From: Halodesulfovibrio sp.
GTDB taxonomy: Bacteria > Desulfobacterota > Desulfovibrionia > Desulfovibrionales > Desulfovibrionaceae
Assembly (NCBI RefSeq): GCF_015482765.1
Contig: NZ_JADMLB010000007.1
Span: forward strand, 1 to 37,328
Direction of reading: 5' to 3'
Length of the DNA stretch: 37,328 nt
Shown: in pieces, positions 9,908 through 23,300 of the stretch
Layout: every line of letters begins with the position of its first letter
Numbering within the stretch: the stretch's first letter is position 1
Notes under the pieces: model-generated
Databases searched by the model: none
Seen by the model: only the letters and a program-made list of their open reading frames with translations
What the model was told of the DNA's origin: nothing
Program-made: the position numbers and the translations under genes

Positions 9908-12493
9908 TTATGCAGCTAAATCCTTTCTCAACTTTGCTAACACATTTTGAAATGCCTGCTCTGAATGCAATACTATATCAAGTTGGCGGGTATGCATAAG
10001 CAAATGCCCAACAACATGCAGCCGTTCTTTTATGTCGTTTGCAGACATCCCTTCACATCTGGCTGTAAGTCGATCACGAACCACATTTACTCGAAAATCG
10101 TGCTCATCAAGTAATATCGCTATCAAACGAACACGGGCATTCTTTTTCTTTAAATCTGCTGCACCACCGGAAAACTTCATTGATATGAAGTTTTCTGCAG
10201 GCACGTCTCCGCACAGCGTTTCAACGGTACAGAAATGATACCCAAAGCGAAATTGTAAACAGCAGAATTTACTACTTATCAAAAAGTAATTCCGCATTGT
10301 GTATACAGAGTTCGCATCCGGTACAAGTGAAGGGTCACAAGCTGATTCTGCAAGAATGGACAGAAAGCTTTTTGCCGTTGCCGGTGGTGGTCCAGCCCAT
10401 TTAATCGCTGTCATTCCCTTCCATATAGCAAGCATCGGAACAGATGAAATATTATCAAAAGTAATAAACTTTCCTGTAGGATACGTAACAAAGCCATCAT
10501 CCAAATCAACCACCCAATACTGCATAGGACAGTTATCATACAACTGCTTTGTTTTTCCTGAAGGAATATGCATTTCGCGTCCCACCCTGAACATTTCATC
10601 AACTGCATATTCATGGCAAAAACGAGTAATATCGTGAAGAGTTTTGCAATTTTCTGCGGTGAACTCTGGACTGGTTGGATCAGTCAGATACAAAGGGACA
10701 ATTTTTTCAACGGCGCTGGCTAACATTTCATAAACAGGAGTACCCTTCATTGACCTGTCGCGCCTACTCCAAAGCTCGATTAACGGTTCAACTCTTCCCG
10801 CATAGACCTTACAATAAGCAGCATCTAACGTAACGTCTCCCTGATACCCCACAAGTTTATCAACACTGCCTACCCCAAAAATCCCAGGAACACCGTATTC
10901 TCTTGCGACACTGGCAAGATGCCCTGCTCTTGAGCCGGTTCCGGAAATAACTCCGCTGGCTTTTGACAAAAGTGGTGCCCATCGAGGTGAGGCATATTGG
11001 ACAACAAGAATAGCCCCTTCCGGAAACGTCAACGCGTCCACTTCTCGCTGCACAAAAATTAATTCACCACACCCTACACCAGTTGAAACAGTATCTCCAC
11101 CAGCTAACAGTAACGGCGCATCAACTTCAATAGAATGCACCACACACGGGGTCTGTGCCAATGGTCTACTCTGCAAAAAGCGAATCTCTCTGTTCTTGGT
11201 AATCCCCCATTCAATATCTTGAGGACAACCATAGTGAGCTTCTATTTTCTCTGCATTATGCTGAAGCATTTTTAATTCTTTCAACGTCAATACGGGCACG
11301 TATTGCATCGGCAACGGTACAGCTATCAATTCTACACCGCCATCAACAGAAACATACTGCTTCTCTTTATTTACTATATTCTGCCCGACAACCACCGGCC
11401 CCAAACCGGACTCTTTACGCATTTTGACGATGTCCGCCGCAACTCTTCCATCAACGACTCCTTTAGGAAGTCCATACGCTGCGTGTACCGTGGTTATATC
11501 ATGCTCACAATCAATTGGGTCTGTGCTGTAAAGCACACCGCCTGCAACCATTTCCTGCATCGGCATTATGGCAACACATACTGCTAGGTCACGAGGAGCC
11601 AGCCCCTTTGCTTTACGATACGCAACCGCTTCGGGAGAATACTTCGATGCAACAACCTCTTTCCATGCAGAAAGAAGTTCTTCATACGAGACATTAAGAC
11701 GGGAAAGATATTGACCGGCAAAAGCATGATGGCGGCCATCTTCGCCAACAGCACTGCTGCGAACGGCAAAGCGCATTTTTGCTGGATCACCCAGCGCTTC
11801 TGCCATCTGTAAAATTTGACGGGAAAGTTCCTCCGGAACAGCTGCACCCTCAATGTCCTGCCGTATCTTTGAACATACGGCATACAATTCATTCAGTGAG
11901 TCAGAAGTCACTTGGCGTAATCTTCGATCACAGACTTCATGCAGCTCATTATGACGCATAAACGTCCAGAATGCTCTTGTGGTAGAGGTAAAACCATCTG
12001 GAACAGGCACGCCTATGTTATTGCGCAACTCGCCAAGGTTTGCAGCCTTCCCACCCACAAGAAGTGCATCATCAGCTGTAATATCCTTAAAAGACAAAAC
12101 AAGAGGACATTCTGTGTCGGAAGGAACATTCAGCAGCTCTGCATTCAGTTCTTTCTGAATTTCAAGAAAGCGCTGCTTCACAGGAGCAAATTTCTCAGGG
12201 GAATACCCTTCAATACTGGAGATAAGCTGAAAAACAGCAGTATTCACACGCGTGACCTGCGTGCGCACGTACGTCGCATCGAATTCACGTCCCTCAGACA
12301 ACGCAAGCTCCATCTGCGCCATCACATCCAAAGCTTTATTGTTTGCACTTATCAGACGCTTAAAATTAGACGCGGCTTTCGTAAAATCTTGCTGCAAAGC
12401 CTCTTCTCCCCTGTCTTGGTCAGAGGAGAAGAGGCGTCGGGTCGTTTCAGCAAGTCCCTTCAAGCAATGTAAACCTTGATGAAGGATCTTCAT
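9908..12493 (-). CDS. PEP-synthase-like ATP/phosphohistidine protein with distinct C-terminal domain
   Basis: 861-aa protein. Residues ~1-125 are helical and polar. Residues ~130-445 form a PPDK_N-type ATP-grasp domain (LLVGGKAANLGEL, FAVRSSAVGEDG, DIEWGITKNREIRFLQSRPL). Residues ~465-560 are the swivelling phosphohistidine domain; His525 in SGTGSRAGHLASVAREYGVP matches the catalytic His of PEP synthase. The C-terminal ~300 residues do not show the TIM-barrel PEP/pyruvate domain; they carry an unfamiliar region with RFGYHFCTVE and NFISMKFSGGAAD. It is therefore probably not a classical PEP synthase (ppsA) and may transfer phosphate to another acceptor, as rifampicin phosphotransferase does. 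It is the last gene of the TauE operon, starting 3 nt after the upstream stop with AAAGGAAG as ribosome site. Confidence 0.85.
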   Translation of the reverse strand: MKILHQGLHCLKGLAETTRRLFSSDQDRGEEALQQDFTKAASNFKRLISANNKALDVMAQMELALSEGREFDATYVRTQVTRVNTAVFQLISSIEGYSPEKFAPVKQRFLEIQKELNAELLNVPSDTECPLVLSFKDITADDALLVGGKAANLGELRNNIGVPVPDGFTSTTRAFWTFMRHNELHEVCDRRLRQVTSDSLNELYAVCSKIRQDIEGAAVPEELSRQILQMAEALGDPAKMRFAVRSSAVGEDGRHHAFAGQYLSRLNVSYEELLSAWKEVVASKYSPEAVAYRKAKGLAPRDLAVCVAIMPMQEMVAGGVLYSTDPIDCEHDITTVHAAYGLPKGVVDGRVAADIVKMRKESGLGPVVVGQNIVNKEKQYVSVDGGVELIAVPLPMQYVPVLTLKELKMLQHNAEKIEAHYGCPQDIEWGITKNREIRFLQSRPLAQTPCVVHSIEVDAPLLLAGGDTVSTGVGCGELIFVQREVDALTFPEGAILVVQYASPRWAPLLSKASGVISGTGSRAGHLASVAREYGVPGIFGVGSVDKLVGYQGDVTLDAAYCKVYAGRVEPLIELWSRRDRSMKGTPVYEMLASAVEKIVPLYLTDPTSPEFTAENCKTLHDITRFCHEYAVDEMFRVGREMHIPSGKTKQLYDNCPMQYWVVDLDDGFVTYPTGKFITFDNISSVPMLAIWKGMTAIKWAGPPPATAKSFLSILAESACDPSLVPDANSVYTMRNYFLISSKFCCLQFRFGYHFCTVETLCGDVPAENFISMKFSGGAADLKKKNARVRLIAILLDEHDFRVNVVRDRLTARCEGMSANDIKERLHVVGHLLMHTRQLDIVLHSEQAFQNVLAKLRKDLAA

Positions 12494-12496
12494 GCA

Positions 12497-13207
12497 TTAC
12501 ACTTCCTTTTTTGAACCACCTTTCATCGCGAGTCCAACGCCCTCACACAGGAAGAACAGAGCGTAGCCCCACCATAATGTGTACAAAACATAGAAGATCA
12601 ATGCAAATGACAGAATTCCATAGCTGTTTGAGGCTTTTTTCGGCTCAATACCAAAATAGTTGTACCCAACCTCTACACCTCTAACAGTAACTGCGTTTAC
12701 AACGACAGCTTCAGAAAACTTCTCCTGACGCTTCAGGGACTTTTCTGCTTCAGTCAACGTCTGCCACCATCTGTACATAGCCAGCTTCGGAAGCAAACCA
12801 TACTTTGTCATAAACGTAGACTCGTCGTTATAAAAAGCTGTGTCACTATCTGTAATCGCCTCAGAAAGCATAGCTCCGAGAGATCCGGTAAACGTGAGCG
12901 TTGTATCATCCTTATGCGCTACCTCTCCAGCACTTGCCAATAACAAAGAGGCCTGCTTTGCAGCTTCTTCGCTGCTATATTTCAAAGAAACAGTCACAGC
13001 AGTATTTTCAACAGCTTTATTCTGCTTTCTTAATGTTTCAATATAATGCGTTGAACCTTTTGAAATTGAGTTGAACAAGGCATCAGACGCTTCAAACGCA
13101 CATCGCCCATTACCGTACCAAGGCATAAACAGTCCGGCGAAAACGCAACCGAAACTAATGGCCATTACCAAACCGAGCATGAAATGTTTGCGATCTCGAA
13201 TCAACAT
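12497..13207 (-). CDS. Two-TM membrane protein of the TauE operon, unknown function
   Basis: 236-aa protein with a transmembrane segment at about residues 9-29 and a second near the C-terminus (about 194-222, SYGILSFALIFYVLYTLWWGY). The ~165-residue loop between them is polar and probably periplasmic. I do not recognise the family. The frame is open to 13261, but the ATG at 13207 follows GGAGGG and begins 2 nt after the permease stop, so I choose it. Tight spacing to the permease and to the PEP-synthase-like gene suggests that the three products work together, perhaps with this one as an accessory or sensor subunit of the permease. Confidence 0.8.
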   Translation of the reverse strand: MLIRDRKHFMLGLVMAISFGCVFAGLFMPWYGNGRCAFEASDALFNSISKGSTHYIETLRKQNKAVENTAVTVSLKYSSEEAAKQASLLLASAGEVAHKDDTTLTFTGSLGAMLSEAITDSDTAFYNDESTFMTKYGLLPKLAMYRWWQTLTEAEKSLKRQEKFSEAVVVNAVTVRGVEVGYNYFGIEPKKASNSYGILSFALIFYVLYTLWWGYALFFLCEGVGLAMKGGSKKEV

Positions 13208-13209
13208 AA

Positions 13210-14460
13210 CTAATCCCTCCTCAGTGTTGGTATGTTGGTAATGAACTTTGTAATTACCCACAGAGCAAAAATACTTACCACTACAAAGAAGGCATAGTTA
13301 CCCCACGTTGCAAGTGACTGAGCAAACTGCGGCGAAATGTCCAAAATTTCCATTTCCTGCAACTTGGCAGGCAACGCGAAGAGACGGTTCACAAAACCGG
13401 CAAGAATAGCAGTTGCATAGAAACCGCGAATATAAATGCCTTTAACTACACGAGTGGTCAACGCACCAAGCTGAATACCGAGCAGAGAGCCGATAAGCAT
13501 ACCCATTGCGAGTGTGTAGAAGATAAAGCCATAAATTGCATACTGGGAAATAGAAGCAAAACCAGCGGTAAAGATAATCTGAAGAATGTCAGTACCAACA
13601 GTGGTAAAGCTGGAAACACCCAGAATGTATACGAACATAGGGAAGGTAAGGAAGCCGCCGCCTACACCCATAATAGCTGCAACAAAACCTACGAAAGCAC
13701 CACACATTGCAACAAAGACACCGGAGATCTGCTTACCGCCCGGTACGAGGTCTTCGTCAAACGTGATCATCGGCGGCAGGTTTACACCTTGAAGTTTAGA
13801 CGCAAGTCCCTGTCCGTCTGCCGGAGCGGAACCATGAGCATCACCGCCGTCATCCTGCTTACGCAGCTTTAAAAAGTCGATAAGCGCATAAAAACCAAGA
13901 AATCCAAGCAGTACTACATAAATAGCACTAATAAATGTGTCACTGAGCACCGGATTGATCTCGTACAGTGCACGGTTTACCAATCCACCGCCGACAACGC
14001 CGCCCAGTGAACCTACCAGAAAAGCAATCGCCAGCTTGGGCGAAACGTTTCCAAGCTTTTTATGAACAGCTGTTCCCATAATTGCTTTTGCAAAGATATG
14101 GAAAAGGTCGGTACCTACTGCCAAGATACCTTTGATTCCCGCGCTCATAAGTGCCGGTGTAATAATAAAGCCGCCACCGGCTCCGATACACCCGGTGATA
14201 AGACCAGCAAAGAGACCGATAACAATTGAGACTACAAAAATACCAGGTGTGTAAAAAGCAGGTGAGTATGCCTTTTTTCCACCTAAAATTTCTGGCATTA
14301 CATCGCCCGCCACTGCCATGGACACAACGATTGCCGGTAGCGCAAGAGCCAACAGTATCAACATACGTTTTTTGCTTCGCAATATATTGTGCGAAACTTC
14401 CAACTCCCACTTCGCGTGCGCCCGCGAGGCGGCCATTAATACAGCATAAAATTTCCTCAT
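13210..14460 (-). CDS. TauE/SafE-family sulfite/organosulfonate exporter-like permease
   Basis: 416-aa polytopic membrane protein of the TauE/SafE (DUF81) family. The two family repeats are visible as glycine-rich motifs: LITGCIGAGGGFIITPALMSAG in the first half, and FVGFVAAIMGVGGGFLTFPMF after a cytoplasmic loop. About eight to nine hydrophobic segments are seen, with an N-terminal extension of ~30 residues before the first. Members move sulfite, sulfoacetate or other sulfur-containing anions; substrate and direction cannot be read from sequence. The start at 14460 follows AGGAGGAAGTT. It lies between a receiver gene and two downstream genes in one minus-strand operon controlled by a sigma-54-type promoter. 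The sulfur-anion role would suit a sulfate reducer. Confidence 0.88.
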   Translation of the reverse strand: MRKFYAVLMAASRAHAKWELEVSHNILRSKKRMLILLALALPAIVVSMAVAGDVMPEILGGKKAYSPAFYTPGIFVVSIVIGLFAGLITGCIGAGGGFIITPALMSAGIKGILAVGTDLFHIFAKAIMGTAVHKKLGNVSPKLAIAFLVGSLGGVVGGGLVNRALYEINPVLSDTFISAIYVVLLGFLGFYALIDFLKLRKQDDGGDAHGSAPADGQGLASKLQGVNLPPMITFDEDLVPGGKQISGVFVAMCGAFVGFVAAIMGVGGGFLTFPMFVYILGVSSFTTVGTDILQIIFTAGFASISQYAIYGFIFYTLAMGMLIGSLLGIQLGALTTRVVKGIYIRGFYATAILAGFVNRLFALPAKLQEMEILDISPQFAQSLATWGNYAFFVVVSIFALWVITKFITNIPTLRRD

Positions 14461-14503: not shown

Positions 14504-14887
14504 CTAGGAACTATGTGAATTATGTACACTTGCTGCATCGTGAACTTTAAACATCAGCTCATCGATGTCTGCAGGCTTAAGCAAATAGTCATAGGCACCA
14601 AGTGCCATGCCGCTGATAGCAACATCTAGATCCGCGTGACCTGTAAGCATGATTACTTCTACATCCGGCATCATTTCTTTGATGCGGCGCAGTGTTTCAA
14701 TGCCGTCAATCCCCGGCATTTTCACATCAAGAACAACCACTTTTACAGGATCTGCCTTCAACTTTTCCAAGGCCTCCATGCCGGATGAAGCAACACTGAC
14801 TGCAACATTTCTTCGTGCAAGCCTGCGCGCAATAACTGACAAAAAGTCCGGCTCGTCATCTACTAAAAGTATTTTTAAATCTTCCAT
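14504..14887 (-). CDS. Stand-alone response-regulator receiver protein
   Basis: 127-aa CheY-like receiver without output domain. The acidic pocket is Asp10/Asp11/Glu12 (LLVDDEPDF), the phosphoacceptor is Asp54 (VVLDVKMPG), the switch residue is Thr82, and the conserved lysine is Lys104 (LLKPAD). It begins 26 nt after the histidine kinase stop, with AAGGAG as ribosome site, and precedes the permease by about 40 nt. It is probably phosphorylated by that kinase. With no DNA-binding domain it must act on a protein partner: a phosphorelay, the permease, or the PEP-synthase-like protein. Confidence 0.92.
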   Translation of the reverse strand: MEDLKILLVDDEPDFLSVIARRLARRNVAVSVASSGMEALEKLKADPVKVVVLDVKMPGIDGIETLRRIKEMMPDVEVIMLTGHADLDVAISGMALGAYDYLLKPADIDELMFKVHDAASVHNSHSS

Positions 14888-14913: not shown

Positions 14914-16281
14914 CTATAGAGCCGGTAAATAATCCACCTCTGCCACAGGCAGTGTCAGTGTGAAACTGCTTCCCTTACCGGGGCTCGATTCCACAGAAAG
15001 GCTACCGTTATTACGCCTTGCAAGGGAGTGAGAGATTGACAATCCAAGCCCTGTCCCCTTGCCTGCTGCTTTAGTGGTGAAAAATGGTTCAAAAATTCTA
15101 TTTTTCAACTCCAGCGAGAGTCCGACTCCGGTATCAGTAATGCGAATAAGAACAGAATGCTTCGTGCTGAATGTTGAAATAATGACTTTATGTTCCTCGC
15201 CCTCTGCCGCCGCAACGGCATCAATCGCGTTATTCACTACATTCATTAAGATCTGCTGAACGTGTCCGGATGATGCGTACGCCGGCACAAAAGCATTCAG
15301 CTGCCATTTAAACTCTATTCCCAAATCAAGTGCTTTAGGCTGAAGCAGATGCACAACGTCCTGAACCATCACATTCACATCAACTTCAGTTTTATTCTCT
15401 GCTCCCTTACGGGACATTCTCAGCAAGCCGTGGGTAATATCTGCGCATCGTTTCCCCTGTTTCTGCATCATATTCAGGGAAGTATTCATTTCAGTAAAAG
15501 TTGCTCCCAAAGACTTTCTTGAGTCCTTGTCCAGTAAGTCTGCCTGTTCCTGCAAATCTTCCAGAAGCTCTTTCACCCATCCGGCTTCCTGAATCATAAT
15601 AGCCAACGGTGTATTAATTTCGTGGGCTATTCCCGCAACCACTCTTGTCTGGGCAGAGAGCCTGTTGGATTCAATCAACTTCTGTTCAAGCTTTTCCCGC
15701 AGCCCCCTTTCCTGAGCAAGCTTCTCGTGGACAAAGCTGGAAAAAATGATCGAGTTAAAAATGGATGTAAAAAGCAGGGAAAAAAACAACGTCAAACACA
15801 AACCGAATGAGAATGTAGCACCGGGGAGCAGGGACTCTATGGATACGCCATAAAAGACACTGCCTGCCCCCGGTACGTACACATGTAGCCAAACGCTGGA
15901 ATTTGGTGGTAGCGGCCACATGGGAACATATATTGAGCTTGCGTGGTCACCGTTCTGCTTATGTACGGTGTCAATAAGACGCTGCTGCTCTTGCACATCG
16001 TCAATATTTGAGGAGGTGATGTGCTGACTATCATCCTGAAGAATCCACCGCCCTTCCGGAAGCAACATAGAAAGCTGTTCCTTTACTTCCTGTGTTGTAC
16101 GAACTTCCTTCTTTTCAACCAGTGCCAGCGCATAGCGCAAAGCAGGTGTAGCGGCATCATCCAGAAAATTATGCATTACCCGACTGCAAAGCACCGCAAA
16201 CAAAATAAACAGCGGGCCTATGCCAATCAGAAAAATTCTTGTAGCAAGCCAGCGGAAGGAGTTATGCGAGGATATATACAT
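14914..16281 (-). CDS. Membrane sensor histidine kinase (TauE operon)
   Basis: 455-aa transmembrane kinase. TM1 is at about residues 15-38 and TM2 at about 155-182, enclosing a ~115-residue periplasmic sensor that I cannot assign to a family. The DHp H-box is GIAHEINTPLA with His220. The catalytic domain shows the N-box NVVNNAIDAV, the G1 box ITDTGVGLS and the G2 box GKGTGLGLSISHSL. A coiled-coil stretch (residues ~184-208) links TM2 to the H-box. A strong ribosome site, GGAGGGAGGAACGC, precedes the ATG. It is the first clear gene after the sigma-54 promoter at 16688-16702, with a leader of nearly 400 nt. Confidence 0.92.
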   Translation of the reverse strand: MYISSHNSFRWLATRIFLIGIGPLFILFAVLCSRVMHNFLDDAATPALRYALALVEKKEVRTTQEVKEQLSMLLPEGRWILQDDSQHITSSNIDDVQEQQRLIDTVHKQNGDHASSIYVPMWPLPPNSSVWLHVYVPGAGSVFYGVSIESLLPGATFSFGLCLTLFFSLLFTSIFNSIIFSSFVHEKLAQERGLREKLEQKLIESNRLSAQTRVVAGIAHEINTPLAIMIQEAGWVKELLEDLQEQADLLDKDSRKSLGATFTEMNTSLNMMQKQGKRCADITHGLLRMSRKGAENKTEVDVNVMVQDVVHLLQPKALDLGIEFKWQLNAFVPAYASSGHVQQILMNVVNNAIDAVAAAEGEEHKVIISTFSTKHSVLIRITDTGVGLSLELKNRIFEPFFTTKAAGKGTGLGLSISHSLARRNNGSLSVESSPGKGSSFTLTLPVAEVDYLPAL

Positions 16282-16676
16282 TGCGTTCCTCCCTCCGCAT
16301 GGCTATGCGCGACAACAGTAAACGAATTGCCCCAACAAGACGTTTAGCCTTCATAAAAATGCTGTTTTCAAGCTTATGCTGCCAGCGATGGTACGGAACA
16401 ATAACTACGCTCAGCAGACACGAAATTGTTGGGAGTAAACGGTATGCAATGCCCCTGCATACAATGCTAGTCTTCACTGTAGACTGACTGCCCGCAGCAA
16501 AAGATGTGATCGAATCTTTCTGGCTGGCTGAAGGCAAGACTTCTCTACAAGTCCGAACCAATACGCCGTCGAGAAATACGGAGAATAACGTATCCTCAGC
16601 ATCCCACATGCTAGACCGACGGGGTACGGCTCCGATTGCTGCCGTGAAGTTATATGTAGTTACATTGCATACCATG
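16282..16676 (-). other. Long leader between the sigma-54 promoter and the histidine kinase
   Basis: About 395 nt lie between the predicted transcription start (~16676) and the kinase start codon. The region holds an inverted repeat GTATGCA/TGCATAC (about 16442-16461) and a further TGCATAC at 16665-16671. One minus-strand frame is open through the whole stretch, from an ATG at 16675 to a stop at 16262 that overlaps the kinase start by 20 nt; it would encode 137 aa with one hydrophobic segment. I see no ribosome site and no clear codon bias for it, so I leave it uncalled. It could instead be a structured 5' leader. Confidence 0.4.
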
Positions 16677-16687
16677 CTCTCTATAAG

Positions 16688-16702
16688 GCAAGGGTTGTGC
16701 CA
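16688..16702 (-). promoter_or_regulatory. Sigma-54 promoter P1 (TauE operon)
   Basis: The minus strand reads TGGCACAACCCTTGC, a perfect -24/-12 element (TGGCAC-N5-TTGC) with correct spacing. Transcription would start near 16676 and run into the kinase-receiver-permease operon. Three upstream copies of a shared element lie at 16801-16866. Confidence 0.88.
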
Positions 16703-16800
16703 AAAAGCACACACAGAAAAACACAAAGATAACCATTTGTTTTACAAGGAAATAAATGACAAAAATCAAAAAAGAGCACACTGATAAACAGCACGCTCTC

Positions 16801-16866
16801 ACGTCAGTTTCTTTTACAGTTGATGTAATTTCCTTTTACAGTTCACCTGGAAAGAAAACTGACACC
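16801..16866. promoter_or_regulatory. Tandem upstream activator sites for P1
   Basis: Site A1 (16801-16818) reads ACGTCAGTTTCTTTTACA. Site A2 (16823-16840) matches it at 14 of 18 positions and lies 22 bp, two helical turns, further on. An inverted partial copy follows at about 16849-16866, so GTCAGTTT and AAAACTGAC bracket the block. This lies about 125-190 bp upstream of the predicted start, the usual range for an NtrC-type activator. The same 18-bp element occurs upstream of P2. Confidence 0.72.
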
Positions 16867-16889
16867 TACCGCTATTCAGCCAAAAATCC

Positions 16890-16917
16890 ACAAAAAAGGG
16901 CAGCAAAATGCCGCCCT
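16890..16917 (-). terminator. Terminator of the kinase-NtrC unit
   Basis: On the minus strand AGGGCGGCA/TGCTGCCCT with a 3-nt loop is followed by TTTTTT. It separates the activator gene (ending at 16965) from the P1 upstream region. Confidence 0.9.
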
Positions 16918-16964
16918 GAAATACAAGCTTATTTCTTGATGACGTCTGTCATCAACAAAGACTA

Positions 16965-18356
16965 TTACCGTTCCTTCAATCCGTACTTTTCGATTCGCCC
17001 CAGCAGTGTTGGTCTGGACATACCAAGTAATTTAGCAGCACGAGTTTTATTCCATGACGCCAACTCCAGAGCTTCTTTAATCACAATAGCTCCAAATCGA
17101 TCAGCTAGAGTCTCAAATGCCTTTTCGTGATGCTCCGTCATAAGGGTGCGCGTTACCCATGCCCGTACATCTTCTTCATCACCTTCCGACTGGGGGGTAG
17201 CCGCCGCAACATCTACAAGCTTAACAAAATCCTCTTTATCTAACGGCAAACCACGACTGAATATGAGCGCCTTGTGCATCTTATTACTCAGCTCACGCAC
17301 ATTCCCCGGCCATGGGTATTTCTGCATCACAGTCAGAGCCTCTTCGGTCAACCCCGGATTGTGCATATCTGATGCGCTGGCATGCATAGAAAGAAAATGT
17401 TCTGCCAACATCGGAATATCTTCACTGCGTTCGCGTATCGGAGGAAGCGTAATATTCACAACATTTAAGCGATAATACAAATCCTCTCTAAATTCACCAT
17501 TTGCTACAGCCTGTTCCAAATCCTTATTGGTTGCGGCAAGAACACGGACATCTACTGAAATAGGCTGGCTTCCACCAAGCCGCTCAACCTGACGTTCCTG
17601 AAGCAATCGTAAAATCTTAGCCTGAATAGAGGTCGGCATATCTCCGATTTCATCAAGAAACACAGTGCCACCATTAGCTAGTTCTATTTTACCGGCTTTA
17701 CGTTGCGAGGCTCCTGTAAATGCCCCCTTCTCGTATCCGAACAATTCACTTTCCAACAAGGTGTCAGGAATTGCTACGCAGTTAATAACCTGAAACGGTG
17801 ATTTAGAACGCAGGCTGTGCTTATGAATTGCCTGTGCTACCAATTCCTTGCCAGTTCCCGATTCACCACGAATAAGAATAGTGGCATCTGTAGGCGCAGC
17901 ACGGCCTATGCGCTTACATACATCCTGCATAGCCCTGCTCTTGCCTAGAAGGATAGGCGTGTTCGAAGCCATGGGGGTTGCACAAGCACTTGCCGCCGCA
18001 GCCTGAATAGCCTTTTCAATTAAAGACAAGATTTCTGGGATATCAAACGGCTTCATGACATAGTCAAACGCCCCCATCTTGGTGGATTCAATTGCTGTGT
18101 CAGTAGTGCCGTAGGCCGTCATAATAAGAACAGGCAAATCAGGGTACAGCGACCGTAAAGCTTTAAACGTTTCCAGCCCGTTCATCCCCGGCAAACGAAC
18201 ATCCAGAACCGCTATATCCGGCCTATTTCGCTCTGCCAGTTCAACACCGGTTTCTCCGCAGTGCGCTTCAAGCACTTCGTACCCTTCAGTATTAAGGATC
18301 TTCTGAAAACTTTTGCGTAACTGAGCATCATCATCGACTAAGAGAATTTTTGCCAT
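16965..18356 (-). CDS. NtrC-family sigma-54-dependent response regulator
   Basis: 463-aa activator with three classical parts. The receiver (1-120) has Asp8-Asp10, phosphoacceptor Asp52 and Lys102. The AAA+ domain (~135-370) has Walker A GESGTGKE at 164-171, the sigma-54 contact loop GAFTGA at 211-216, Walker [13 protein letters not shown] and the arginine region [12 protein letters not shown] Fis-type helix-turn-helix ([25 protein letters not shown]) ends the protein. It would activate sigma-54 RNA polymerase when phosphorylated by the kinase encoded just upstream, whose gene overlaps it by 19 nt. Two sigma-54 promoters flank this unit and share an 18-bp element, so they are its likely targets. 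GGGGA precedes the start. Confidence 0.96.
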
Positions 18357-19822
18357 GTGTTTCCCCGTGTTGCAGGAAGCGCGAGTAAAAAGGTTGTACC
18401 TTGATTTTCTACAGAGGTTACATGCAGCCAGCCGCCATGCTCTTCAACAATTCTGCGTGCAATTGCCAGCCCCAAACCGGAGCCTTCTTCTTTGGTACTG
18501 AAGAACGGCTCAAAGATCTTCTCCAGAACATCCTCAGCAATACCGGGGCCAGTGTCTTCTATTCTGATAAAAACGATTGTTCCAAGGGGATCAACAACGT
18601 CTGTTTTTTCGGTAATTGTAATCGCACCACCTTGAACCATTGCATCACAGGCATTCAAAATTAAGTTCACAAGCGCTTCTTTAAGCTGTCCGCCATCAAT
18701 AGGAATAGCAGGCAAAAGACCTGTTCGCTCAACCGTGACACGAACCTCCTGTGATTCGAAACGATGCTTAAGTAAACGTAACGCCATATCCACAACCTCA
18801 GACGGGCTTTGGATCTTTGCTTTCAGTTCAGGACGGCGTGAAAATTCTAAGAAGTTCTTTGTAATATTATCGATATGCGAGATCTCTTCGCTCACCACAT
18901 CAAAATCTTCCTGCTGCTGGTCATCCAATTTTAAAGTACGCTCAAGCGAAAACAGCCGCATTTTTACCGAGGTAAGCGGATTACGGATGGAATGGGCAAC
19001 CCCTGCTGCAAGTTTACCGACCAGCGCCATCTTTTCAGACTGCACAAGAGTCTCTTTGTTTGCATCAAGCTCCCGTTGTGTATCCCCTATATGGCTCAAT
19101 AAGGACTCCACCTTATTACTCAATGCCAACACATCATTTTTCGTTGAAAGCGGGGTTTCATCACCAAGATCATCTGTGGCATGGGCAAGATTACGGATAG
19201 GATCAAGAATCTTTCTGTACAGGAAAACAACAAGTAAAATTTCTATGATGGCGGATAATACCAACCCTGCTACAATAAGGTCACTTACGATTGTTGCCTC
19301 TTCAGCAAACTCTTTACGGTTGTTCTCTATTGCCTGTACGTACAGTCCTCTAAATTCCTTACAGAGCAAGAGAAGCGTATTGAACTCATCACGAATTTTC
19401 CAATGCAGTTCTGCACCTGCTTCCGGCTCTCCCTGCTTATACAGCTCAATAACTTCCTGCCTACTGGCATCATACTTAAAGTACAATTTCTCAAGGTCAG
19501 CCAAAACCAGCATACTTTCCGGTGAAAAAGCAGCCTGTTTGGCTTTCGTTAACCAGCCCTCAAATAGTATGCGTTTTTCATTCAGCTCTGTAATCCACGC
19601 ATCATCGTGGGAAAGCAGGTAATATGTTGTATTCCCCTTCTGATCCATGAGAGAAGCGGACAGCTCGTGCGATGCCTCCAGTGCAGCAACATTTTTAGCA
19701 GAAAGTTGCACCTGAAGGCTCTGCGTCCGGTTTGTGTACCACAACGTGATACCCGCACCAGCCAGATTCAACACGATAATACAGAACAGAAGTAATGCTA
19801 TTCGGGAGCGTAATGAGATCAT
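18338..19822 (-). CDS. Membrane sensor histidine kinase, partner of the NtrC-type regulator
   Basis: 494-aa kinase. TM1 is at residues ~8-30 and TM2 at ~182-203, with a ~150-residue helical periplasmic domain that resembles a four-helix-bundle (MCP-like/CHASE3-type) sensor. A HAMP region (~204-250) and a coiled coil follow. The H-box is GVAHSIRNPLTS with His277; the Ser-Ile-Arg variant is typical of NtrB/ZraS-type kinases. N-box NLILNACDAM, G1 IEDTGPGIA and G2 GSGLGLAIARRI are intact. The frame extends to 19873, but the ATG at 19822 follows TAGGAAGC and gives a normal N-terminus. Its 3' end overlaps the activator gene, so the two are a translationally coupled pair. Confidence 0.92.
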   Translation of the reverse strand: MISLRSRIALLLFCIIVLNLAGAGITLWYTNRTQSLQVQLSAKNVAALEASHELSASLMDQKGNTTYYLLSHDDAWITELNEKRILFEGWLTKAKQAAFSPESMLVLADLEKLYFKYDASRQEVIELYKQGEPEAGAELHWKIRDEFNTLLLLCKEFRGLYVQAIENNRKEFAEEATIVSDLIVAGLVLSAIIEILLVVFLYRKILDPIRNLAHATDDLGDETPLSTKNDVLALSNKVESLLSHIGDTQRELDANKETLVQSEKMALVGKLAAGVAHSIRNPLTSVKMRLFSLERTLKLDDQQQEDFDVVSEEISHIDNITKNFLEFSRRPELKAKIQSPSEVVDMALRLLKHRFESQEVRVTVERTGLLPAIPIDGGQLKEALVNLILNACDAMVQGGAITITEKTDVVDPLGTIVFIRIEDTGPGIAEDVLEKIFEPFFSTKEEGSGLGLAIARRIVEEHGGWLHVTSVENQGTTFLLALPATRGNTWQKFS

Positions 19823-20052
19823 GCTTCCTACCTTTCTATTGCCTTGTGAATATACACCAGAACCACCTGCCACCAGAGAAGCTACTCACTATCTGCCAAA
19901 AAATTACTTTCAACACAAATAGACAATCTTCATAGTAGCGTATTCAAAGCTAATACATAATGCGCTGTAAAAAGATAACGGGTCAACCCCGTAAGGTAGA
20001 CCCATTATACGTGTGCGCCAATGCCATAACCAATATATTCAAGGAGGCACAT

Positions 20053-20433
20053 CTACGTTTCTACACCTACTTGCTCATATGCCGCCATGATAGTTATGAT
20101 AAGTGTTTCAAAATCAACAGGTTTTGTCATGTAAGCAAAGGCGCCAAGCTGCATAGCCTGTGTTTTTTCTTTTTCGCCGCCGTGACCGGTAACAATGATG
20201 ACTTGGACATTCGGATAGTTTTCTTTTACCCGTTCAAGCACTTCAAGTCCGTTAATTCCCGGCATCATAATATCCAGCAGCATAACATCCGGTACACCGT
20301 CTTCCACAATGGACAGTGCGGTTTCACCATCCAGCGCAACTGTGGAACCGAAATCACGGAGCCGTAACCGTTCAGCAAGAGTTTCTACAAAATCCTGCTC
20401 ATCATCCACAAGTAACAGTTTAATTTCACGCAT
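20053..20433 (-). CDS. Stand-alone response-regulator receiver protein
   Basis: 126-aa receiver without output domain: Asp10/Asp11/Glu12, phosphoacceptor Asp54 (MLLDIMMPG), Thr82 and Lys104 (YMTKPVD). I use the ATG at 20433, which follows GAGGTAAC, rather than the open frame to 20451. It starts 17 nt after the duplicated-motif protein and is the third gene of the unit driven by promoter P2. Its likely donor is the dCache kinase encoded two genes upstream. It is closely similar in layout to the receiver at 14504-14887, so the locus has two output-less receivers. Confidence 0.92.
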   Translation of the reverse strand: MREIKLLLVDDEQDFVETLAERLRLRDFGSTVALDGETALSIVEDGVPDVMLLDIMMPGINGLEVLERVKENYPNVQVIIVTGHGGEKEKTQAMQLGAFAYMTKPVDFETLIITIMAAYEQVGVET

Positions 20434-20450
20434 TGTTACCTCACTCCACA

Positions 20451-20831
20451 TTAAATAGTTACAAGACCGTAACGAACCTGATCCTGTCGCAAGCCGACTG
20501 TTTCAATAAAGGACATAAACTCGTGCTCACGCTCAACCGGCGACGGTTCTCTACCCATCAATTTCTGGGCAATATCAGGATGTCCGGCTTCTGCATACGT
20601 CATAGGCACAAAGAGATTATCCATCACGTCAAATACAGTCGTAGCTTTTTCACGTTCAATGCGGGCAGCCCAGTCACCTTCTGACATTGCTGCGGAAACC
20701 ATATGTTCCTCCAGCCAACCTTCAACAGGGCTAGGCAAAGCTGCCATTTCCCGTGCTGTGGAAGGGAAACCGGCCTCAGCGTATGTAGCTGCGGTAAACG
20801 AATTTTCTAAAAACATAAAAACTTTCTGCAT
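20451..20831 (-). CDS. Small protein with a duplicated TYAEAG motif, unknown function
   Basis: 126-aa soluble protein between a histidine kinase and a receiver. Two internal copies of a ~25-residue unit are visible: FTAATYAEAGFPSTAREM near the N-terminus and FVPMTYAEAGHPDIAQKL about 60 residues later, each followed by a P-S-P-V-E/R stretch (LPSPVEGW, EPSPVERE). The first half and the second half thus look like tandem duplicates. I recognise no family, enzyme motif, membrane segment or DNA-binding motif. A strong ribosome site, AGGAGGTCGTC, supports the start. Its place inside a two-component operon suggests a role as adaptor or modulator of kinase or receiver. Confidence 0.85.
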   Translation of the reverse strand: MQKVFMFLENSFTAATYAEAGFPSTAREMAALPSPVEGWLEEHMVSAAMSEGDWAARIEREKATTVFDVMDNLFVPMTYAEAGHPDIAQKLMGREPSPVEREHEFMSFIETVGLRQDQVRYGLVTI

Positions 20832-20912
20832 GACGACCTCCTGATGTGCTTCTTCAACAGTTCACACTTGCAACTGTGTATACCGTAAAGAGTTACTTCA
20901 TAATTTTCGTGC

Positions 20913-22643
20913 CTACGCCTTTTTTGATTCTGCTGAAAACGGCAATGTAATGGTGAACACACTTCCTGTACCTACATGGCTTGTTACAGAAATATCACCG
21001 CCCAGCTTCCTGATGATGCCGTATGAAATGGCTAATCCAAGTCCATTTCCGGCATTTCGTTTGGTGGTAAAAAACGGTTCAAAAATACGACTCATGGTTT
21101 CTTCACTCATACCGCAACCGTCATCACCGATGACTAGCCGTATACCGTTGTCCACTGTTTTACTTTCCAGATAAATGACGCCGCCCTCATCAACTGCTTC
21201 CAGAGCATTGCTGACGATATTCAAAAATACCTGCTGCAACTGTCCCTTGTCAGACTCAATTTCAGACAATGACTCTTCAAGCATAAGGTTGACGGAAATA
21301 GAGCGCTTTGTGAGTTCCTTCTCTAAAAACTCGAGCACTTCGCTGACGACTTCATTAACATTCAGCCACTCATTTTTTGCCTCAACTTTACGGGCAAACC
21401 CGAGCAGTCTGTGTGTAATGGCACTGCACCGTTCAACAGACGATGTAATCCCTTTAATTTGCCGCTCCAACACGCCGTTCAATTCAAACTCCGGCGAACG
21501 AGCCAAAATGTCAGTCATTAAACCGGACTTCTCTTTTATGACCGCGAGGGGATTATTAATCTCATGAGCAACGCCCGCTGCAAGCCGTCCTATGGAGGAT
21601 AACTTCTGCGTATGCTCAATTTCTTTCATAATATTTTCGCGGCATTCATCCGCCATCATTAACTGGCGAATTAGAACATTAGTTAATCCGAAGGCTACAA
21701 TAGTGATAAGGAGTGCACCGCCGATCAGTACCACAAGCAAATCAGTGCGAAGAGAAAACCATGCACCAGTAGCCTGTGAGGCAGGACGAACCGCCATCAG
21801 GATGAACTCGGGCTGAACAAAATTTACATACGTTGCGGAAAACTTGCCCTGTTCTGTTGTTATCAACGCGTTACCACCGCGATACTGAGCATGTGGCAAC
21901 TCAAAAGGAACAGCACTCAACACGGAACCGAACAAACGGGACTCTGTCTGCAACACCCTGTCTTTATTCAACAGAAATGCATCTACTCCCGGAGCCAAAT
22001 TCATAAATGATATCAGTTTGGAAAACGGCTCAGTTGCAATGGTTGCACGCAACACCCACGGCTCACCATTTGCTGTAATACTCTCCACCGCTATGGCGAT
22101 GTGCGGCAATTTTCGGTACCCGAGAAAAACACTGCTAATATACGTACCGCGCACTCTCGTTTCATTAAACCAGTCATGCTTTGAGTAATCTTTTCCAAGC
22201 AACTTATACGGGCCTGCGTAAGCCACCTGTTTGCCTTCCGAATTGATCAATCCTAAGTCAACCAACCCTTCAAATTCTTCTTTTGCTGTATGAAAGATCT
22301 TTCGAAGCTTTTGTGTATTGGAAAGCTCTTCAAAGCTGTTTGTTGCTGCAATGAAGCTCACAGCAGAAAGACGTTCATTTAAATACAGTTCAAATGAGTA
22401 CTTCGTTTTTGTGACAAGACTTTGTGTTGATAGCCGCTGCTCTTTCTCCAACGAAGATTTATAGATATGAAAATTTATCAGTGCCATGAGGCATAACGGA
22501 ACCAAGGCAACCATGCCGAAAAGGCCGATCATCTTAAATCGAAGAACATTGTACCGACGTAATCCGCCTTCCTCTTTTGGCACAAAGTACTTCACAAATG
22601 ATTTTGAAAAACGATTTAAAGCTGCCATCAGTTCCATCCACAC
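20913..22643 (-). CDS. dCache-type sensor histidine kinase
   Basis: About 576 aa. TM1 is at residues ~38-60 and TM2 at ~300-325. The ~240-residue extracytoplasmic part between them looks like a double Cache domain, with the Cache-like stretch LINSEGKQVAYAGPY...DYSKHDWFNETRVRGTYIS. Such domains bind small molecules such as organic acids or amino acids. The H-box is GVAHEINNPLAVIKE with His360. N-box NIVSNALEAV, G1 IGDDGCGMS and G2 GNGLGLAISYGI are intact. The start is uncertain: GTG at 22643 and ATGs at 22637 and 22628 are all possible and none has a strong ribosome site. It is the first gene after sigma-54 promoter P2 and leads a unit with the small protein and the receiver. Confidence 0.9.
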   Translation of the reverse strand: MWMELMAALNRFSKSFVKYFVPKEEGGLRRYNVLRFKMIGLFGMVALVPLCLMALINFHIYKSSLEKEQRLSTQSLVTKTKYSFELYLNERLSAVSFIAATNSFEELSNTQKLRKIFHTAKEEFEGLVDLGLINSEGKQVAYAGPYKLLGKDYSKHDWFNETRVRGTYISSVFLGYRKLPHIAIAVESITANGEPWVLRATIATEPFSKLISFMNLAPGVDAFLLNKDRVLQTESRLFGSVLSAVPFELPHAQYRGGNALITTEQGKFSATYVNFVQPEFILMAVRPASQATGAWFSLRTDLLVVLIGGALLITIVAFGLTNVLIRQLMMADECRENIMKEIEHTQKLSSIGRLAAGVAHEINNPLAVIKEKSGLMTDILARSPEFELNGVLERQIKGITSSVERCSAITHRLLGFARKVEAKNEWLNVNEVVSEVLEFLEKELTKRSISVNLMLEESLSEIESDKGQLQQVFLNIVSNALEAVDEGGVIYLESKTVDNGIRLVIGDDGCGMSEETMSRIFEPFFTTKRNAGNGLGLAISYGIIRKLGGDISVTSHVGTGSVFTITLPFSAESKKA

Positions 22644-22693
22644 TATAAAAAAACATTACAGAGACTTTGCTCACACCACCTGCTTCCATAAAG

Positions 22694-22708
22694 GCAAAAG
22701 ACATGCCA
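22694..22708 (-). promoter_or_regulatory. Sigma-54 promoter P2 (dCache kinase operon)
   Basis: The minus strand reads TGGCATGTCTTTTGC. It matches the -24/-12 consensus with the same spacing as P1 and one change (T for C at the end of TGGCAC). Transcription would start near 22682, about 40 nt before the kinase start. Copies of the shared 18-bp element lie 88-125 bp upstream of that start. Confidence 0.82.
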
Positions 22709-22769
22709 CTTTTTTATCCTTGTAAAACAGGATATTAGTAAAAATTGCCTTTTGATGAATATAAAAAAA

Positions 22770-22807
22770 ACGTCAGGTCTTTTTACAATCGTAAAAAAAG
22801 CTGACGT
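22770..22807. promoter_or_regulatory. Palindromic upstream activator site for P2
   Basis: Two inverted copies of the element face each other. 22770-22787 reads ACGTCAGGTCTTTTTACA on the plus strand, and 22790-22807 reads ACGTCAGCTTTTTTTACG on the minus strand. Both fit ACGTCAGNTYYTTTTACR, also found upstream of P1. The dyad is not followed by a T run, so an intrinsic terminator is less likely. Confidence 0.72.
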
Positions 22808-22855
22808 CCTGACACCCGATGTAATCAGAGATTTCCCGTTTCTTTTGCTTTGTTC

Positions 22856-23213: not shown

Positions 23214-23260
23214 CCATTGCATCACGAACAGAATAGCTGACCTTACTCATGCACACTAAG

Positions 23261-23300
23261 AAAAGTCCGGACATGTTCCCATGTCCGGACTTTTTTAGTC
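23261..23300. terminator. Strong bidirectional terminator
   Basis: A 15-bp perfect stem AAAAGTCCGGACATG/CATGTCCGGACTTTT (23261-23275 and 23280-23294) with a TTCC loop and a T run on the plus strand. It serves the small plus-strand gene and, from the other side, the minus-strand MarR-GNAT gene that ends at 23295; its stem touches that stop codon. Confidence 0.92.

What the first reader, a model, noticed from the sequence alone, without database searches (positions are those of the whole stretch)
16688..22807. Shared 18-bp activator element links two sigma-54 promoters around an NtrC-type gene
Two sigma-54 promoters (16688-16702 perfect; 22694-22708 one mismatch) each have copies of ACGTCAGNTYYTTTTACR upstream: two tandem copies plus a partial inverted copy near P1, and an inverted pair near P2. 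The identical core ACGTCAG...TTTTAC at both places, at the right distances, and the activator gene lying between them, indicate one dedicated regulon driving the dCache kinase unit and the TauE permease unit. The element is not one I know.
Basis: partly seen in the sequence, partly recalled or inferred. Interest (0 to 1): 0.78.

Follow-up and report, generated by a model that had tools for sequence, protein, structure and literature searches.

The report
Activator sites for a permease operon
Two promoters in a sulfate-reducing-type bacterium share a short DNA site that a neighbouring gene activator very probably binds; the site precedes the same permease operon in dozens of related genomes, so the circuit looks real but of a familiar type.

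Summary
Exact copies of ACGTCAGNTYYTTTTACR lie at 16801-16818, 22770-22787 and 22790-22807; the core occurs exactly nowhere else in the 3.71 Mb genome. Each 18-mer is one complete TGT-N11-ACA quasi-dyad, two or three per promoter.

Conservation makes the case. In 26 of 26 fetched relatives that contain TauE, a leave-own-locus-out matrix finds the site plus a sigma-54 promoter upstream of TauE (reversed control 0 of 26). A strict site-plus-promoter pattern hits 58 of 288 family genomes, control 0; 54 of those 58 carry the NtrC-type gene, in some genomes far away.

It is ordinary in kind: Desulfovibrio sigma-54 regulons for TSUP permeases and TGT/ACA motifs are published (PMC4641369); DVU0118 is a probable, unproven counterpart.

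Unexpected: the TauE transcript should begin with a conserved structured RNA (16441-16673), found in four species only.

The parts
16802..16818 (-). P1 activator site, proximal dyad TGTAAAAGAAACTGACG
16824..16840 (-). P1 activator site, second dyad TGTAAAAGGAAATTACA
16848..16864 (-).
16688..16702 (-). sigma-54 promoter P1, TGGCACAACCCTTGC; predicted start 16676
16772..16800 (-). terminator-like hairpin of the regulator operon, between P1 sites and P1 promoter
16441..16673 (-). conserved structured leader RNA of the P1 transcript
14914..16281 (-). histidine kinase, 455 aa, first recognised gene of the P1 unit
14504..14887 (-). single-domain receiver, 127 aa
13210..14460 (-). TauE/TSUP permease, 416 aa
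12497..13261 (-). 254-aa protein without Pfam or NCBIfam match, conserved behind TauE
9908..12493 (-). PEP-synthase-like protein, 861 aa (PPDK_N and PEP-utilizer mobile domains only)
16965..18356 (-). NtrC-type sigma-54 response regulator (receiver, AAA+ with GAFTGA, Fis HTH)
18338..19873 (-). sensor kinase with four-helix-bundle-type sensor, presumed partner of the regulator
22771..22787 (-). P2 activator site, proximal dyad TGTAAAAAGACCTGACG
22790..22806 (-). P2 activator site, second dyad CGTCAGCTTTTTTTACG
22694..22708 (-). sigma-54 promoter P2, TGGCATGTCTTTTGC; predicted start 22682
20913..22643 (-). dCache histidine kinase, 576 aa, first gene of the P2 unit
20451..20831 (-). 126-aa protein without Pfam or NCBIfam match
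20053..20451 (-). single-domain receiver, 132 aa

Best explanation
The 18-mers are upstream activating sequences for the NtrC-type response regulator encoded at 16965-18356. Its partner kinase (18338-19873) is presumed to phosphorylate it. Dimers then bind the TGT-N11-ACA dyads, two or more per promoter and about two helical turns apart, assemble the AAA+ ring, and drive open-complex formation by sigma-54 polymerase bound about 60-100 bp further downstream. P1 turns on kinase-receiver-TauE permease-254 aa-PEP-synthase-like; P2 turns on the dCache kinase-126 aa-receiver unit. Shown here: the sites, the promoters, their conservation, and their co-occurrence with the regulator gene. Inferred: binding, phosphorylation, activation, operon extents, and what the permease carries.
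For: Leave-own-locus-out matrix: 26 of 26 TauE-containing loci have the site plus a good sigma-54 promoter upstream of TauE, reversed control 0 of 26. Strict composite pattern: 58 of 288 family genomes, control 0. 54 of the 58 have the regulator at E<=1e-135; of the 4 others, G065 and G104 hold partial matches 65% and 60% identical, and G191 and G197 are 84% and 73% complete. Of the 60 matches 30 were fetched, and all 30 lie ahead of TauE-operon genes: TauE itself within 1.5 kb in 20, earlier operon genes in 10. The site goes with the operon where it lies more than 100 kb from the regulator gene on the same contig (G085, G086, G103, G148, G196). Footprint among the four closest species: both P2 dyads 15 of 17 columns invariant, P1 proximal dyad 12 of 17, P1 promoter 14 of 16. 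The regulator keeps GAFTGA, D52 and a Fis HTH. The genome has one rpoN.
Against: No binding or expression data. 46 of the 100 genomes with the regulator lack the strict composite pattern; fetched loci show a relaxed site or promoter in 9 of them, no TauE and no hit in 5, and 32 were not looked at. The P1 second dyad (10 of 17 columns) and the P2 promoter (10 of 16) are no better or little better conserved than their surroundings. The P2 pair is also a stable hairpin (-18 kcal/mol) followed by T8, so its palindromy alone does not prove protein binding. Genomes are not phylogenetically independent, so the Fisher p of 1e-25 is nominal.
Confidence: 0.87

Rival explanations
1. At P2 the inverted pair is mainly an intrinsic terminator for transcription entering on the minus strand, and its likeness to the P1 element is incidental or secondary.
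For: RNA fold -18 kcal/mol, z -7.0, followed by U8. The T8 is invariant in four species whose flanks diverge. In G009 both arms change together and keep the palindrome. The P2 promoter keeps only 10 of 16 columns.
Against: The same 18-mer at P1 is tandem, not a hairpin, and its proximal copy runs on into non-T sequence. The P2 site lies 77-78 bp from a sigma-54-like promoter in all four species. In G005 and G006 a site precedes the dCache-kinase unit 100 bp from a promoter-like string, and no T run follows it in the short G005 stretch printed. The upstream GNAT gene already has an inverted repeat at its 3' end, 23259-23296 (listed by the scan for the plus strand).
Confidence: 0.2
2. The sites are bound by another enhancer-binding protein, such as a paralogue, and the adjacency of this NtrC-type gene is incidental.
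For: The genome has five more related proteins at E<=1e-100. In G005 and G006 a PAS-type regulator-like gene is itself the first gene behind a site. Paralogues DVU0539 and DVU0946 share one motif in D. vulgaris (PMC3333781, passages).
Against: Across 288 genomes the strict site tracks this regulator (54 of 58), including genomes where the two are unlinked.
Confidence: 0.08
3. The repeat is a chance or AT-rich compositional similarity.
For: The window alone is weak: 1 of 100 shuffles also gave 5 hits.
Against: 26 of 26 versus 0 of 26 reversed; 58 of 288 versus 0.
Confidence: 0.01

Closest known systems
D. vulgaris Hildenborough DVU0118 regulon (target operon DVU0123-DVU0121; Table 1 of PMC4641369, read)
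   Same: Two-component sigma-54 response regulator with GAFTGA, driving one nearby operon described as 'transmembrane transport'; a three-gene operon would fit TauE-254 aa-PEP-synthase-like.
   Different: Not shown to be the orthologue: no held genome was recognised as D. vulgaris, the gene contents of DVU0121-0123 were not seen, and its motif is in a figure or supplement that was not read. The P2 dCache-kinase unit is not among its listed targets.
TGT/ACA-type enhancer-binding motifs of Desulfovibrio (PMC4641369, section 6 read)
   Same: [quoted passage not shown] the window element is TGT-N11-AC(A/G).
   Different: The inner letters (AAAA, CTG) and the paired arrangement seen here could not be compared with the published logos.
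DVU0539/DVU0946 regulons (PMC3333781, PMC4641369, PMC10102598; passages)
   Same: NtrC-type regulators, auto- and cross-regulated operons, a putative anion exporter as target.
   Different: The DVU0542-0545 exporter is of the PSE family with universal stress proteins, not TauE/TSUP with a PEP-synthase-like protein.
LurR regulon (PMC6456213, passages)
   Same: NtrC-type regulator with several 16-bp sites upstream of a sigma-54 promoter, conserved across the order.
   Different: Different site (GTCCGCTTTTCAAGAC type) and a lactate operon.

Membership tests
sigma-54-dependent NtrC-type regulon | activator with AAA+ sigma-54 interaction domain, GAFTGA and Fis-type HTH | tested here: met
sigma-54-dependent NtrC-type regulon | -24/-12 promoter ahead of the targets | tested here: met
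   P1 perfect, P2 one mismatch; P1 14 of 16 columns, P2 10 of 16 columns invariant in four species
sigma-54-dependent NtrC-type regulon | rpoN in the genome | tested here: met
   TIGR02395 over cut-off, one copy
sigma-54-dependent NtrC-type regulon | conserved activator sites upstream of the promoter | tested here: met
   26 of 26 TauE loci, control 0 of 26
sigma-54-dependent NtrC-type regulon | regulator binds the sites and activates transcription | not testable with these tools
   needs DAP-seq or gel shift, and mutants
DVU0118 regulon orthologue | regulator orthologous to DVU0118 and targets orthologous to DVU0123-0121 | tested here: inconclusive
   an exact D. vulgaris promoter string matched 0 of 288 held genomes, so no comparison was possible
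DVU0118 regulon orthologue | same binding motif | not testable with these tools
   logos are in a figure or supplement; not read
intrinsic terminator (P2 pair) | stable stem followed by a U run | tested here: met
   the consensus scan did not list it
intrinsic terminator (P2 pair) | an upstream same-strand transcript that needs ending there | tested here: inconclusive
   the GNAT gene has an inverted repeat at its own 3' end; no other same-strand ORF of at least 100 aa lies between

The most novel reading that the evidence does not exclude
In this four-species lineage the gene that opens the conserved TauE operon elsewhere, a degenerate receiver, has given way to a roughly 233-nt structured leader RNA that begins at the predicted sigma-54 start site, so the activator would switch on an RNA-controlled transcript; and the activator's site was carried along when the dCache kinase became a separate unit, keeping one regulon over two operons.
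Probability: 0.4. Interest if true: 0.55.

Novelty: new member of a known kind. Interest (0 to 1): 0.4.

Why it matters
It gives a sequence-level definition of an activator site, with a partner regulator, for a TauE permease/PEP-synthase-like operon that is found in many genera of the family and whose transported substrate is unknown. The regulon can now be called from sequence in relatives, and the sites are short enough for direct binding tests. The structured leader adds an unexplained second layer of possible control.

Tried and rejected
The extra degenerate genome hit C46:40099 (GTAAAAAAAGCTGACA) was set aside as a target: it lies inside ORFs and has no sigma-54-like sequence within 260 bp. 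The other three off-locus hits were not examined. DVU3305 and DVU0539 were considered as the D. vulgaris counterpart and set aside on operon content. An attempt to recognise D. vulgaris among the held genomes by a published promoter string failed, 0 of 288. The ORF of 122-137 codons over the leader was tested as a protein: changes fall rather evenly over codon positions (for example 52, 43, 52; 40, 25, 46) and most changed codons are nonsynonymous. It is not convincingly related to the receiver of the sister clade (hhalign probability 0.7%, E 0.076; best blastp E 0.13). Yet its frame is open in all four species (chance about 0.001-0.002 each by shuffling, not independent), so the point stays open. 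Rfam gave no family near its gathering score. A paper search for a Desulfovibrio leader RNA gave one unrelated paper.
Full report
WHAT WAS CHECKED. The core ACGTCAGN4TTTTAC has 12 hits with up to one mismatch in the 3,714,212-base genome, three of them exact and all three here; the backward control has 14. A looser form, GTAAAN5CTGACR, gives seven hits, three of them here, against six in the control. Within the window the evidence is modest (1 of 100 shuffles equals it), and the consensus came from the sites themselves, so comparison between genomes was needed.

ANATOMY. Read on the transcribed strand, each 18-mer is a 17-bp quasi-palindrome of TGT-N11-AC(A/G) type. P1 has TGTAAAAGAAACTGACG (16818-16802), TGTAAAAGGAAATTACA (16840-16824) and a weak TGTCAGTTTTCTTTCCA (16864-16848), spaced 22 and 24 bp. 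P2 has TGTAAAAAGACCTGACG (22787-22771) and CGTCAGCTTTTTTTACG (22806-22790), 19 bp apart. A terminator-like hairpin of the regulator operon lies between the P1 sites and the promoter (16800-16772). P1 leads to kinase, receiver, TauE permease, a 254-aa protein without a Pfam match, and a protein with PPDK_N and PEP-utilizer mobile domains only. P2 leads to dCache kinase, a 126-aa protein and a receiver. The regulator has a receiver domain, an AAA+ domain with GAFTGA and a Fis HTH; rpoN is present once.

CONSERVATION NEARBY. Aligning the four closest species (window, G007, G009, G004; regulator 92-93% identical) gives a footprint. At P2 both dyads keep 15 of 17 columns and the T8 behind them 8 of 8, against 104 of 213 ungapped columns overall; the P2 promoter keeps only 10 of 16. 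At P1 the proximal dyad keeps 12 of 17, the second 10 of 17 and the promoter 14 of 16, against 261 of 549 overall. The P1 dyads are thus only moderately better than their surroundings on this measure, partly because the leader downstream is itself conserved.

CONSERVATION FAR AWAY. I fetched 39 stretches around regulator orthologues. TauE (over 50% identical) lies in 26 of them. With a matrix trained without the locus tested (close relatives stay in the training set), 26 of 26 have a site with a sigma-54 promoter 88-113 bp further on (55-150 allowed), within 5 kb upstream of TauE on its strand; the reversed sequence gives 0 of 26. In the 13 stretches without TauE only one weak hit appeared (L052). 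For six of those 13 genomes (G022, G085, G086, G148, G188, G196) the strict pattern was found elsewhere in the genome.

CO-OCCURRENCE. The regulator (E<=1e-135) is in 100 of 288 family genomes. The strict site-plus-promoter pattern is in 58 of 288, its backward control in 0. Both are in 54; the site alone in 4; the regulator alone in 46; neither in 184 (Fisher p 1e-25, nominal because species are related). Of the four exceptions, G065 (87% complete) and G104 (100% complete) hold partial regulator matches, 65% identical over residues 1-291 and 60% over 74-392; G191 and G197 (84% and 73% complete) show none above 49% identity. Thirty of the 60 matches were fetched: 20 have TauE within 1.5 kb downstream and 10 have earlier genes of the same operon. 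For 9 of those 10, TauE was seen in longer stretches (and the window itself); the tenth, G011, was not followed. In G085, G086, G103, G148 and G196 the site and the regulator gene lie more than 100 kb apart on one contig. The site thus belongs to the target operon, and its likely partner is this regulator. Of the 46 regulator-only genomes, nine are covered by fetched loci that show a relaxed site or promoter (G018, G032, G062, G081, G183, G226, G237, G271, G279), five by fetched stretches without TauE and without a hit (G014, G025, G028, G031, G079), and 32 were not looked at.

P2. The inverted pair and its distance to the promoter are kept in the four closest species (77-78 bp). In G005 and G006 of the same genus a site lies 100 bp from a sigma-54-like sequence ahead of a PAS-regulator-like gene, a 124-aa protein and then the dCache kinase (the gene names there are read by eye, without a family search). 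None was found in the first 4.5 kb of the G003 locus, and the G002 contig starts too late to tell. Against a pure activator role, the P2 pair folds at -18 kcal/mol and is followed by an invariant T8. In other genera a dCache kinase (29-35% identical) sits in the TauE operon behind the single site, which suggests that the kinase became a separate unit here and kept the control. That step is inference.

LEADER RNA. The predicted P1 start (16676) is three bases before a 233-nt element (16673-16441) closed by an invariant 12-pair helix, GGUAUGCAAUGU/GCAUUGCAUACC. Its consensus structure has 12 pairs changed on both sides versus 5.7 +/- 1.5 in shuffles and 0-6 when slid; the structure was derived from the same four sequences. 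Its alignment folds 12 sd below column-shuffled alignments; the flanking 179 columns 0.6 sd, the reverse complement 4.7 sd and the neighbouring region with the regulator operon's terminator 11.5 sd below. A 295-nt stretch of the window from the start site has z -2.6. A covariance model, run with strict filters, finds it in four genomes of 288, once each at this locus; the other listed hits are weak (reverse-strand matches of the same element and a 56-base piece in G296). In G002, G003, G005 and G006 the same place holds a 132-133-aa degenerate receiver, and similar receivers follow the site in many other genera. An ORF stays open across the leader without protein-like constraint. With four sequences the RNA is likely, not proven.

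WHAT IS KNOWN. In D. vulgaris, 36 sigma-54 regulons were reconstructed, nine sigma-54 operons carry TSUP or PSE transporters, and several motifs are TGT/ACA half-sites with 9, 11 or 12 bp between (PMC4641369: abstract and sections 5, 6, 7 and 13 read, other passages seen). DVU0118 with target DVU0123-0121 ('transmembrane transport') is the most likely counterpart, but the link rests on neighbourhood reasoning; a search for DVU0118, DVU0119 and DVU0121-DVU0123 names found only that paper. PMC3333781, PMC10102598, PMC6456213, PMC4481167, PMC5840216, PMC4001038 and PMC6299228 were seen as passages only. According to PMC5840216 (passages), functions of TSUP proteins in sulfate reducers cannot yet be predicted from sequence.

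VERDICT. It is a new, or at least newly delimited, member of a well-known kind. The leader RNA is the more unusual part.

Noticed in passing
16441-16673 (-): Conserved structured leader RNA at the predicted 5' end of the P1 transcript; single copy, four species only among 288 genomes, no Rfam match.
   Followed up: partly
16262-16675 (-): An ORF of about 120-137 codons stays open over the leader in four species but shows no codon-position constraint; in sister species the same position encodes a degenerate receiver.
   Followed up: partly
22763-22808 (-): The P2 site pair doubles as a terminator-like hairpin with an invariant T8 tail.
   Followed up: partly
9908-12493 (-): PEP-synthase-like protein with only PPDK_N and PEP-utilizer mobile domains; no further Pfam domain was found C-terminal to them, so its phospho-acceptor is unclear.
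   Followed up: no
L053:4642, L171:2380, L172:14152: In one other genus (g25) a site also precedes a 690-708-aa gene that looks like a chemoreceptor by its N-terminal sequence (by eye, no family search).
   Followed up: no
L054:1340, L170:15384: In another genus (g11) a further site lies just behind the PEP-synthase-like gene, ahead of another membrane sensor-like gene.
   Followed up: no
L042:1699, L044:17710: In G005 and G006 a PAS-type regulator-like gene and a 124-aa protein precede the dCache kinase behind a site.
   Followed up: no
20451-20831 (-) and 12497-13261 (-): Two small proteins of the units have no Pfam or NCBIfam match.
   Followed up: no
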